Below, piece by piece: positions 29,501 to 38,500 of a stretch of DNA of 64,000 bases. The notes under the pieces were generated by a model. That model saw only the letters and a program-made list of their open reading frames with translations. It was not told the origin of the DNA and searched no databases. The stretch covers positions 26,548,684 to 26,612,683 of the forward strand of contig CAIIXF020000012.1 in assembly GCA_903813345.2 (NCBI GenBank), written 5' to 3'. This DNA comes from Owenia fusiformis (taxonomy: Eukaryota; Annelida; Polychaeta; Sabellida; Oweniidae). The translations under genes were made by a program, and so were the position numbers. Each line of letters begins with the position of its first letter. Positions within the stretch are counted from its first letter, which is position 1.

Positions 29501-32500
29501 GCGAGTAATCCTAAAGTTGAACATTCACGTCGGGAACATATCATTGGTAGATCAGTTTGAATGGGATATGGGTGAACGAGAAAACAGCCCAGAAGAATTT
29601 GCAACAAAACTTTGTGCGGAGTTAGGTAAGAGAAGGTGGTTCCAATAGTTCCTTTATACAGGGTGTCCATAATCATATTTACGCTTAATTGGTAGATCAG
29701 TTTGAATGGGATATGGGTGAACGGGAAAACAGCCCAGAAGAATTTGCGACAAAACTTTGTGCGGAGTTAGGTAAGAGAAGGTGGTTCCAATAGTTCCTTT
29801 ATACAGGGTGTCCATAATCATATTTACACTTAATTGGTAGATCAGTTTGAATGGGATATGGGTGAACGAGAAAACAGCCCAGAAGAATTTGCAACGAAAC
29901 TTTGTGCGGAGTTAGGTAAGAGAAGGTGGTCACAATAGTTCCTAAATTATACAGGGTGTCAATCAATTATTTTAACACTTTACACAGACTCTGCAATGTA
30001 ACTGTAAATGGCCTTATAGGCACCCTGTATTTTGTTTGGTGACAGCCTATTCCTCGTCAATCAAAAGATTCTATGGGGACAAAAACTTCTTTTTTCTAGT
30101 TTTTATGTATACGAAATAATAATACTTTAATGTTCTTTAGGCTTGGGTGGGGAATTTGTCACAACAATATCTTACAGCATTCGTGGGCAGCTAAGTTGGC
30201 ACCAGCGAACATACGCATTCAGGTAAGATGACATTTTTTTTATTTCAAGAAAAAGAAATAAACAGCTGTTTTCATTGCAATCTACTTATAATGTCAGTTT
30301 TTTATTTCTGTCTTTTCTACATTAAATTTTGTTATCAAGTGAAGGTTTAGAGACATCTCCCAGAATTCATTGCACATAATACACATTGGAGTTTGCTTTA
30401 TCGATTCATGCAGTGAATTTTGGGATCTAGCTACCCTTCTGTGCCGAATGTCCATAAGTTACATCTACTCCTCAGTTTATTTAGAAGTACAGGAGTCACA
30501 TTCGAATGCCCAAAGATTTGGGATTGCCCTATAACTGCAGCCACAGCTAAATGCCTGGAGACTTACAGCATTGTACCTTCCTTGCATTGTACAAATAGAT
30601 TCAGGAAAGTAATTACTTCCGGATTGACCACAGACGCGACACGGATTCTGTAAAAGAAAATTTATCCATTTTTCTGGTTTATATGTTATCTAGGTTTTAG
30701 TAATTCACTCTACTATACTTTGCATTTGGTGTTCATGAGCAACCCATTTGGTTTATTAGTAAAGATTATGTTTTTTTATTTTTTATTTGTCAGTTCCTTA
30801 TTAATGGTTTGTCTGATGACTGTTACATGTTAAAGAGAGAATCAGATCTTGGGAGCAGCCTACCACTATTTCAATTCCAGAATATTTCTGGCTTATGTCA
30901 TTCCTTTTCATGTCTATTTTCTAAAAATCCCAAAAGTGCACACTTTATTTCAAGAGAACTAAAGATTTTCATAATGATGTATTTAATATTTTTCTCTAAA
31001 ATGGTTACCATTCTTATTATTTGGGAGAATTTAAACATTTTCACCCATTTTTGCACCTTGAACCCATTACATATAACTTCACCAATTCATTATATATCGA
31101 AATTCTTTTGGGAGATATTGTATTTGAGATTGTAAGGAACAGATTGATAGGTCAATTGAACATGTTGCTTGTAATTTTGTCACCCCCATAGATCTGATTC
31201 TGCCTTTAATAAGGTACATGTACTTTCAAAAAAAACCTAGAAATACATAAGATACTCTGCTTATCTAATTGTATTTCTAGGGGTTAGGTATAGTAAAGTG
31301 TAATTGTTTTGACAAATCTTGTTCTTTGCGCTATATTATTTTTTATTATTTAAAAGTAAGTAAAACGAAAACAAGCTCTATAAAAAAACTTTTAATTGGA
31401 ACAAAAATCATTATCTATATCATTCGAAAAAGAATTAGAAAACTATAATCATGTTATTTTTTTTGTTTTCTCTCCGAATTTTGAATGAAATTTTTGCATA
31501 TTTTTTAATATTTCTGTACGATACCTCATATTTATTATTTAACATTGCAAGCTTCTCAAGGTAACTACTTTAGACAAATATTTTTAATGATTTCATCTTA
31601 CCACTAACTGCTCTTTTAATGCATCAATGTCGGTGGTTTGGTCATTGAGTGTACCCTGTTGCTGTAAAACAAATAATGAAATTAAAATCATTTTACAGTC
31701 AATCATCTCTAAATTAGGCAACATTGCGATGAGTAAACATATGGATTAATCTTAACCCATGCAACACTATTGATGTGGAGTTGTACATTGTGATAACCAA
31801 ACATATGAATTAATCTTAACCCATGCAACATTTTTGATGTGGAGTTGTACATTGTGATGAGCAAACATATGAATTAATCTTAACCCATGCAACACTATTA
31901 ATGTGGAGTTGCACATTGTGATGAGCAAACATATGAATTAATCTTAACCCATGCAACACTATTAATGTGGAGTTTTACATTGTGATAAGCAAACATATGA
32001 ATTAATCTTAACCCATGCAACATTTTTGATGTGGAGTTGTACATTGTGATGAGCAAACATATGAATTAATCTTAACCCATGCAACACTATTAATGTGGAG
32101 TTGTACATTGTGATAAGCAAACATATGAATTAATCTTAACCCATGCAACACTATTAATGTGGAGTTGTACATTGTGATGAGCAAACATATGAATTAATCT
32201 TAACCCATGCAACACTATTAATGTGGAGTTGTACATTGTGATAAGCAAACATATGAATTAATCTTAACCCATGCAACATTTTTGATGTGGAGTTGTACAT
32301 TGTGATGAGCAAACATATGAATTAATCTTAACCCATGCAACACTATCAATGTGGAGTTGTACATTGTGATGAGCAAACATATGAATTAATCTTAACCCAT
32401 GCAACACTATTAATGTGGAGTTGTACATTGTGATGAGTAAACTTATGAATTAATCTTAACCCATGCAACACTATTGATGTGAAGTTGTCACAATTGAAAC

Positions 32501-35500: not shown

Positions 35501-38500
35501 TTTTAAAACGTTGTAACAATAAAATTAATGGGGCATTTACCATATAAAAAAATTTGTATGTTAGGAATTTATTCTGTGAAAATTTCATGAAAAAATATTC
35601 AAAATTGAGAAAGTTATTGAGAAAATAGAGAGGCATGACTTGTTCTGGCCAGGCTACTATGTATCCTCCAATACAGATAGTATGGGATATCAGCGCTCTA
35701 TTGGAAACTCAAATACAATTATGCTGCAACCCTTGGGGTGAGATCATCTTGTGTGACTTACCTTTAAACAATGTTGACATTTAAACATTTTAAGTTTGGA
35801 ATATTCATTATACATTTCTGAGAAATTTTGTTTATTTTTGATTTAAACGTTCACAAAATTGTTTTGTCATGTTCCTTTTCATTTAACCCAACTCAATCAA
35901 TTCAACATTCAAAGAAATAACATAATTTCCCATCTCCATTGGATCTTCCTGAACCAGCGAGGGGAGTCAGAGGACAACACGGGGACTGTGTTGCCCTTAA
36001 ATTATAAAATATGATTTGCTTTCTAAAATCCTGTATGATTGAAGAAATTATTGGGGTCATATTTGTATTTTGAATTTTAGTTTTGATGTATCAGTTATCG
36101 TAAAAAGACAATTATATTATTTGCAAGACTATATATACTCTTATTTCTAATCGGCTCATATTATTTGGCCGAGTCTTGAATATTCCCATTGCTAATCAAC
36201 TTACCTACCGTATGTTAATTGGCTAAGGGTAAGATTCTCACTTAAAAAGTATAAAACCTGTCTAATCCAAACACTTCTGGGACTAGCCAAAAGTGTTCAG
36301 TTTAACAGGTGTTTACATTCCAAGGTTTAATAAACATGAAAGTCAATTGGAGATTACAAATTTGGGATTGAGAAAAGTGTTCATACTGAGAGTTGTTTGG
36401 ATGAGAAAGGTATTTTATTATTTATGTGCATAAATTCATTTTTTTATTATTCTGAACGATCGACCTGGCATCTTTATATAAATCTATAATGTACTTGTAT
36501 TGAGTGAGAACTGTCATGCACAACACCCTTGTATTAACTATTATGAATCATGCTTCATGTGGGGACGATTATTCTAGTATTCAATGTATATGTGTTTGAG
36601 ATTATAAGTTTTACGTTTATTCAATAAACCGTTTTAGCCCATAATAGTCTTGTCTAGTTGGGGTTGTCGAATTGGCCGAGAGGGCTTAGGCGCCAGCACG
36701 TTCAGGCTAGGCGATTGGGCGCCGTAACCATAAGGTTGCGAGTTCGAGACGCGGTGTGCTCTGTGCGTTTATTCATGTATGTTGATAAGTGGAGAGTATT
36801 CAGATATAAAGGTTTCACTGTACTCACTTTCTTGCAAGAACGTTTCTTGACACCGTTTGACTCGCCACTGCCGGACGAGCCACCGCTTGATTTGCCGGCA
36901 TCAGCATTGACAAAAAGTGCAACTAGCAAGAGAACTGCAACCACCTTCATCCTTGTATTTCTGAAACCAACAAATAAAAATGTATAAAATTTCTCAAACA
37001 CTAACATTTAACTAATACTGCATTGTAAAATGTACATTTACATGTACATGTAACTGTATTGTAATTGTTTTTTGCAATTGCTTAAACATGTTTTTTCTTT
37101 GAAATAAAAAAAAGAAAAGAAAAGAAAGAAATAAAAATGCCAAACATAAACATATTCCAAGGTTCTGTGCTGATCTAAAGATCTCATTGGCCAAGGTAAT
37201 AACGGCAAAGTACTTGTATATGTCCAACCACCTTCACCAAAGATGTTTTCATTTAACTTAAATAAACAATAATGTCAAAGATAACATTTTTTGAGGTTCT
37301 GTGCTGATTAACTCTTGCTGACCAACCTCAAGATATTTCAACTATGATGTCATAATTATATCTGTTTACTAATGTGAAAACATGCAATTTTGCTCAATTT
37401 TCCATCAAAATTGCCAGTCACCAGCAGAAAACCTCCAAAAATAGCTTTGCCCAGCAATGAGTTAGAGTAAAAAAACTGCAGCTTTCTTCAGCAACAGTGT
37501 TTTCCTGATAAAGATAACAACAATGTTTAACATCAATATGATCAACATAAATAACAACATAAATAAAAAATATGCAATGTTAAAGCTTAAGCTGATAGAG
37601 TTGAATAATTTCATGCTATAACTTTAACATAAAGTAGGAAAATGTCATGTTAAACTTACATACATAAAGTTAAGAAATGTCATGTTAAACTTACACACAT
37701 GAAGTTAAAAAAAGTCCTGTTAAAACTTTTACACACATAAAGTTCAAAAATGTCATGTTAAAACTTACACGCATAAAGTTTTAAAATTTTCATGTTAAAA
37801 CTTTTATACACATAAAGTTTAAAAAAAATGTCATGTTAAAACTTGCACACATAAAGTTAAAAAAATGTCACCTTAAAACTTAGTCACATAAAGTTAAAAA
37901 AAATGTTATGTTAAAACTTACACACATCAAGTTTAAAAAAGTCATGTTAAAACTTACACACATCAAGTTTAAAAAAGTCATGTTAAAACTTACACACATC
38001 AAGTTTAAAAATGTCATGTTAAAACTTACACACATAAAGTTTAAAAATGTCATGTTAAAACTTACACACATAAAGTTTTAAAAATTTTATGTTAAAACTT
38101 TTGCACAAAGTTAAGAAATATCATGTTAAAACTTCAACATAAAATAGGAAATTACTGTGTTAGAACTTCATTATGATTAAAAAATGTCACTTAAACCTGA
38201 TATATCAACAACAAAAAACTCTGAAATTAAATATATGAATCACTTATTGAAATGAAATGTTATCTTGTAACAAAATCATTGTTATATTTCACATAATACT
38301 AAAATATTTCATATGACTACTTTCACTGCTGCCAATAATGTTTATGTTCAAACCTAGGTGGTATAACATGTATAATTTACCATGAACTTAATTTATGAAA
38401 TAAATGATTAAAAAAACTACTTTCATTTACCTGAGATTTACCTACAAGCGGTCTAAGAAATGTAAAGTTCAGAAAAACTTGCAGATTTTATACTAGTTCA

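What the first reader, a model, noticed from the sequence alone, without database searches (positions are those of the whole stretch)
30477..36950. Secreted coiled-coil protein assembled from phase-0 microexons, nested antisense in a SMARCB1 intron
Seen: signal-peptide exon, six exons of 36-60 nt, every intron phase 0, a continuous Leu/Ile heptad pattern across exon joins, and a Cys-rich last exon. Inference: the in-frame microexons could be included or skipped freely, giving a secreted oligomer with variable stalk length. The layout recalls the microexon genes of parasitic flatworms and the stalk-plus-head design of collectins, but the sequences are not ones I recognise. This is my best candidate for an undescribed system in the window.
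Basis: partly seen in the sequence, partly recalled or inferred. Interest (0 to 1): 0.85.

Follow-up and report, generated by a model that had tools for sequence, protein, structure and literature searches.

The report
Secreted stalk-and-head protein from microexons
An animal gene tucked backwards inside an intron of another gene appears to encode a small secreted rod-and-head protein whose rod is built from tiny exons that look as if they were copied in pairs, and a partial relative lies nearby; the head resembles no family we could test, and its job is unknown.

Summary
Eight exons at the stated coordinates splice in phase 0 to a 183-aa protein: signal peptide, 86-residue coiled coil from six 36-60 nt exons, seven-Cys last exon. 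A splice-site scan trained only on SMARCB1 recovers all six microexons; 0 of 400 simulated windows held six together; 0 of 5000 shuffles reached the stalk's periodicity. The gene lies antisense in a SMARCB1 intron. New: a partial paralog about 24 kb away on the same strand (33-nt phase-0 microexon, related head exon, similar 3' end), so this is a small family. Also new: stalk exons were duplicated in neighbouring pairs, and the register survives loss of a pair but not of a single middle exon. So 'skipped freely' is not supported; 'changed in pairs' is. The heads match no Pfam family above cut-off and no solved protein by sequence; AlphaFold models are poor. The layout resembles flatworm micro-exon genes, but their size criterion is not met and homology could not be tested. 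Most likely a secreted oligomeric binding or structural protein. Expression, splicing, species and function are unproven.

The parts
36828..36950 (-). exon 1 coding part (123 nt): signal-peptide-like start, Gly/Ser linker, KKR, one Cys
   Evidence: a good acceptor for a 5' UTR intron lies 10 nt before the ATG, score 9.1 with the SMARCB1 matrix
35219..35260 (-). microexon 2 (A1, 42 nt): [14 protein letters not shown]
34821..34856 (-). microexon 3 (B1, 36 nt): [12 protein letters not shown]
34590..34625 (-). microexon 4 (A2, 36 nt): [12 protein letters not shown]
   Evidence: block 34578-34645 resembles 35207-35274 at 74%
33666..33701 (-). microexon 5 (B2, 36 nt): [12 protein letters not shown]
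   Evidence: block 33624-33731 resembles 34779-34886 at 94%
32953..33000 (-). microexon 6 (A3, 48 nt): [16 protein letters not shown]
   Evidence: stretch 32994-33155 resembles 34619-34786 at 86%
31602..31661 (-). microexon 7 (60 nt): [20 protein letters not shown]
30477..30647 (-). last exon: 56-aa head with seven Cys, then TAA
   Evidence: no Pfam family above cut-off, no solved relative by sequence below E 0.7
30301..30306 (-). AATAAA (possible poly(A) signal) inside a 3' region shared with the paralog
   Evidence: read; 3' region alignment
62276..62308 (-). paralog microexon (33 nt, phase 0): CQTTLESKLAQ, resembling exon 6 and its flanks
   Evidence: returned by the splice-site scan; 80% over 45 nt, E 0.003; alignment
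61723..61881 (-). paralog head exon: PCHICGQARIGDNVMDILCDAARIKAINVDTADANGCRLDTTPTSWVLNCAT, stop
   Evidence: tblastn E 5.5e-4 with composition correction and masking off; Smith-Waterman 62, maximum of 5000 shuffles 45
61070..61246 (-). paralog 3' region with AATAAA at 61075-61070
   Evidence: 76% over 180 columns, E 2e-30
30223..42151 (+). SMARCB1 intron that hosts the gene antisense

Best explanation
A protein-coding gene of a small family encodes a secreted stalk-and-head protein. Shown from sequence: a signal-peptide-like N-terminus (by eye), an 86-residue coiled-coil pattern with period about 3.49, a single Cys before the stalk and a seven-Cys head after it, all joined in phase 0; stalk exons multiplied by tandem duplication; a partial paralog nearby. 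Inferred: chains bundle through the stalk (number not determinable), the Cys before the stalk may link chains, the KKR before it may be a convertase site, and the head is a disulphide-held binding or cross-linking module presented in several copies. Stalk length changes by neighbouring exon pairs, because a pair keeps the register (24 residues and seven core layers for exons 3+4; 28 residues, four heptads, for exons 5+6) while a single 12-residue exon breaks it. The most likely role is an extracellular binding or matrix protein; the ligand is unknown.
For: Gene model; splice-site scan and simulations; periodicity, 0 of 5000 shuffles; pair-versus-single skipping; exon-pair duplications; paralog with microexon, head and 3' end in the same order and phase.
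Against: No transcript evidence. No family or fold for the head; AlphaFold mean pLDDT 47.2 and 48.7. 12 of 720 exon orders have stronger periodicity than the native one. No sign of positive selection between the heads: pN 0.45, pS 0.63, on only 32 synonymous sites. No relative in prokaryote or viral contigs; no animal collection could be searched.
Confidence: 0.6

Rival explanations
1. A micro-exon gene in the flatworm sense: microexons are spliced in and out singly to make a pool of slightly different secreted proteins.
For: Signal-peptide-like stretch in a longer first exon, longer last exon, symmetrical exons between (MEG description).
Against: 0 of 6 microexons here are under 36 nt, 3 of 6 are exactly 36; skipping one middle exon breaks the register. 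MEGs were said to appear restricted to platyhelminths (PMC4350168, passages), while this window's SMARCB1 is 272 of 368 identical to recalled human, which hints at another phylum but does not prove it.
Confidence: 0.15
2. A structural or matrix protein (mucus, byssus, shell, egg coat) in which the coiled coil only cross-links and the head binds nothing specific.
For: Coiled coil plus Cys-rich end and Gly/Ser linker; no lectin-type head returned.
Against: Nothing tested here separates it from a binding protein.
Confidence: 0.2
3. A decaying or unexpressed gene copy in a family that is being lost.
For: In the paralog, an exon-like stretch at about 61960-61917 has no GT donor (by eye; its match to exon 2 is only E 5.2); the paralog head has five Cys, without counterparts of C35 and C53.
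Against: Frames and splice sites of the main gene are intact and the stalk periodicity is kept.
Confidence: 0.05

Closest known systems
Micro-exon genes (MEGs) of schistosomes and other flatworms
   Same: Signal peptide in a longer 5' exon, longer 3' exon, central part of small symmetrical exons, secreted product (passages of PMC4671649 and PMC4350168).
   Different: Exons 36-60 nt instead of mostly under 36; a coiled coil whose register is kept by exon pairs; Cys-rich head. No sequence comparison with MEGs was possible.
Resistin / RELM hormones (from recall)
   Same: Signal peptide, helical coiled-coil stalk with an N-terminal Cys, Cys-rich C-terminal head.
   Different: No Resistin family returned for the head by Pfam at E up to 10 (HMMER filters drop most weak matches); Cys spacing differs (recalled); stalk from microexons.
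Collectins, C1q-like and fibrinogen-related lectins (from recall)
   Same: Secreted oligomers with a stalk and a C-terminal head.
   Different: No such domain returned for the head; no collagen repeat in the 183 aa.

Membership tests
Flatworm micro-exon genes (MEGs) | central coding part mostly of exons under 36 bp | tested here: not met
   0 of 6 under 36 nt, 3 of 6 exactly 36; the one paralog microexon is 33 nt. Definition from passages of PMC4671649.
Flatworm micro-exon genes (MEGs) | symmetrical microexons | tested here: met
   6 of 6, and the paralog's 1 of 1
Flatworm micro-exon genes (MEGs) | signal peptide in a longer 5' exon; longer 3' exon | tested here: met
   123-nt and 171-nt coding ends; signal peptide by eye, no predictor run
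Flatworm micro-exon genes (MEGs) | alternative splicing into variant proteins | not testable with these tools
   no RNA data
Flatworm micro-exon genes (MEGs) | sequence relationship to a numbered MEG family; flatworm origin | not testable with these tools
   no eukaryote collection held; species not given; no whole genome held
Resistin family | Resistin domain in the Cys-rich head | tested here: not met
   head alone against Pfam at E up to 10 returned 1 family, a PHD finger at E 0.87
Collectin / C1q / fibrinogen-related lectins | C-type lectin, C1q or fibrinogen head domain | tested here: not met
   same search; paralog head 0 families at E up to 1

The most novel reading that the evidence does not exclude
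A length ruler made by splicing or exon copying: microexons work in neighbouring pairs of 24 to 28 residues, each adding whole core layers without breaking the coiled-coil register, so the animal can make secreted oligomers whose stalks differ in fixed steps. It would be a microexon-gene strategy outside flatworms, carrying a head domain not yet described.
Probability: 0.15. Interest if true: 0.8.

Novelty: new variant of a known kind. Interest (0 to 1): 0.52.

Why it matters
If the gene is expressed as modelled, it ties microexon structure to a physical rule: exons can be copied or skipped only in units that keep a coiled-coil register. That is directly testable with long-read RNA. If the species is not a flatworm, it would also extend microexon-built secreted proteins beyond the group they were reported in, and add a small Cys-rich head that the libraries searched here do not recognise.

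Tried and rejected
Relatives of the head. Pfam: head alone 1 family at E up to 10, a PHD finger at 0.87; paralog head 0 families at E up to 1. PDB sequences: 1 match at E 0.72, a designed protein; two-sequence profile, 1 match at E 2.9. GTDB contigs: 61 stretches matched a pattern, none confirmed; IMG/VR: 16 and 37 stretches, none confirmed; an exon 3/5 DNA pattern, 0.

Whole protein. Pfam gave 70 families at E up to 10, of which 25 were shown; the best was Baculo_PEP_C at 6.5e-5, 23.4 bits against a cut-off of 38, and none of the 25 shown reached its curated cut-off. PDB gave 8 sequences at E up to 1, best TrwJ at 0.0019 over residues 22-122. I take both as coiled-coil composition matches.

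Structure. AlphaFold of the head with the paralog and alone: mean pLDDT 47.2 and 48.7. Both place strands at about 37-42 and 45-50, not to be trusted; no fold search was run.

Accelerated evolution. The 3' regions of the paralogs agree at 159 of 211 alignment columns (184 ungapped), the codon-aligned heads at 75 of 147 nt. I considered diversifying selection and dropped it: pS 0.63 is above pN 0.45, so conversion or constraint of the 3' end is as good a reading. Exon-versus-flank identity, 6 pairs at 3 flank sizes: only A2/A3 was lower in the exon (p 0.0043, 0.031, 0.013, uncorrected); the other 5 pairs were not; random 100-nt pairs average 0.65 identity with that aligner. Weak.

A donor-like site inside the head exon at 30566 (score 4.0) is judged unused because the paralog keeps residues encoded beyond it (G36, C37, P43, W46, C50).

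Papers, seen as listings with the starts of abstracts unless said otherwise: 0 papers; 21 of 21 listed; 15 of 851 listed and 15 of 14,842 (both too broad to say anything); 1; 18 of 18. No title or abstract start shown describes this gene. Passages only were read of PMC4350168 and PMC4671649.

Full report
What is there. On the minus strand between 36950 and 30477, eight exons join in phase 0 to a 183-aa protein. Exon 1 holds a signal-peptide-like start (by eye), a Gly/Ser-rich linker, a KKR and one Cys; six exons of 42, 36, 36, 36, 48 and 60 nt hold 86 residues of Leu/Ile-rich helix; the last exon holds 56 residues with seven Cys and a stop. A good acceptor lies 10 nt before the ATG (score 9.1), so a 5' UTR exon is likely. 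An AATAAA begins 171 nt after the stop (read). The gene sits in the SMARCB1 intron 30223-42151; nine SMARCB1 exon pieces on the plus strand read open, 272 of 368 residues identical to human SMARCB1 as I recall it.

Is it more than chance. Splice matrices were trained on SMARCB1 sites only. At thresholds equal to the weakest of this gene's own sites, the window yields 14 open phase-0 candidates of 24-66 nt on both strands; six are these exons, one belongs to the paralog, seven lie elsewhere. In 400 simulated windows the largest non-overlapping cluster within 6474 nt was 1 in 96, 2 in 223, 3 in 75, 4 in 4 and 5 in 2; none had six. The joined peptide has its strongest hydrophobic period at 3.487 residues with power 18.5; the maximum of 5000 shuffles was 10.9. 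Eight readings of simulated clusters of four or more had at most 0.069 power per residue, against 0.216 here. Splice sites and coiled-coil pattern are two separate lines of evidence.

A second family member. A tblastn of the head against the window finds 61881-61723 on the same strand, E 5.5e-4 with composition correction and masking off; Smith-Waterman 62 against a maximum of 45 in 5000 shuffles. In front of it is a 33-nt phase-0 microexon (62308-62276, CQTTLESKLAQ), returned by the splice-site scan, whose sequence and flanks resemble exon 6 (80% over 45 nt, E 0.003; longer alignment). Behind it is a similar 3' region with the same AATAAA (76% over 180 columns, E 2e-30; 159 of 211 columns). 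Parts, order and phase are shared. A scan with lower thresholds for phase-0 exons of 18-75 nt found no further paralog microexon in the remaining 1.7 kb; I did not search there for its signal-peptide exon, which may lie beyond the window. The paralog head has five Cys: four in the same columns, all five in the alignment. An exon-like stretch without a donor at about 61960-61917 (by eye) suggests part of it has decayed.

How the stalk grew. Exons 3 and 5 with flanks are 94% identical over 108 nt; the stretches before exons 4 and 6 are 86% identical over 169 columns, and exons 2 and 4 with flanks 75% over 112 columns. The simplest history is an older copy that made exon 4 from exon 2 (or the reverse) and a recent copy of the pair 3+4 that gave 5+6; this order is inference. 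About 470 nt sit in one copy of the duplicated intron and not in the other (repeat blocks D4 and D8 are adjacent in one copy and apart in the other); the inserted stretch, about 33623-33156, has terminal inverted repeats by eye.

What that means for splicing. Taking out exon 3, 4, 5 or 6 alone lowers periodicity to 0.086, 0.127, 0.112 and 0.117 per residue; taking out pairs 2+3, 3+4, 4+5 or 5+6 leaves 0.217, 0.217, 0.217 and 0.208; the native value is 0.216. Shorter chains score a little higher per residue by chance, so the pair values are slightly flattered, but the gap is large. Exons 2 and 7 can go alone (0.198, 0.250). The core spacing over exons 3+4 sums to 24 residues in seven steps; exons 5+6 have 28 residues, four heptads. 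So free inclusion is unlikely for the middle of the stalk, and pairwise change is what the duplications already show. Whether splicing uses it is unknown. Against over-reading: 12 of 720 exon orders score higher than the native one.

What it is not. The head alone returned one Pfam family, a PHD finger at E 0.87, and the paralog head none at E up to 1. PDB sequences gave nothing below E 0.7 for the head. Prokaryote and viral contigs gave nothing confirmed. So it is not a recognisable resistin, C-type lectin, C1q or fibrinogen head. AlphaFold gave mean pLDDT 47.2 and 48.7. No animal collection was on hand, so 'unrecognised' means by these libraries only.

Comparison with micro-exon genes. In passages of PMC4671649 MEGs have two long flanking exons, a central part mostly of microexons under 36 bp, the signal peptide mostly in the 5' exon, and 26 of 33 microexons symmetrical for the newly named ones; a passage of PMC4350168 says they appear restricted to platyhelminths. 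This gene shares the layout, with 6 of 6 symmetrical, but 0 of 6 are under 36 nt. I therefore do not file it as a MEG; it is like one in layout. Of 18 papers that name both microexons and molluscs, none describes such a gene in its title or abstract start.

Species. Not given, and no whole genome is held. GC is 34%. The SMARCB1 identity hints at a slowly evolving invertebrate such as a mollusc or annelid; this is a guess.

Verdict. A real, intact-looking gene of a small family, probably a secreted oligomer with a coiled-coil stalk lengthened by exon pairs and a Cys-rich head of unknown fold. The stalk reading is fairly well supported by sequence; the role of the head is inference.

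Noticed in passing
29543-29980 (+): The 3' part of a SMARCB1 exon with its donor is present three times in tandem (145-nt unit, 94% alike), giving spare exon ends in the intron.
   Followed up: partly
14382-17361 (-): RPE65-family carotenoid oxygenase ORF 14382-15836 (Pfam E 6.9e-66) antisense inside another SMARCB1 intron (5817-24442); an ORF at 16957-17361 that starts like a signal peptide may be its first exon (by eye; itself 0 Pfam families).
   Followed up: partly
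55290-57982 (-): ORF with reverse transcriptase (RVT_1 above cut-off) next to an ORF with a weak integrase-like match below cut-off; looks like a DIRS-type element (recalled).
   Followed up: no
33156-33623: Insertion with terminal inverted repeats in one copy of a duplicated intron; a MITE-like element that post-dates the duplication.
   Followed up: partly
30870-31085 and 61399-61609: A repeat shared in opposite orientation by the two family members (77%); another pair lies at 36252-36409 and 10454-10612 (82%).
   Followed up: no
39629-39703 and 39928-40002 (-): Two tRNA-Ser(GGA) genes in the same SMARCB1 intron.
   Followed up: no
20244-22806: 32-nt satellite, about 80 copies, 91% alike, open in several frames.
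   Followed up: no
31721-32488: 64-nt tandem repeat, 12 copies, in the intron between exons 6 and 7.
   Followed up: no
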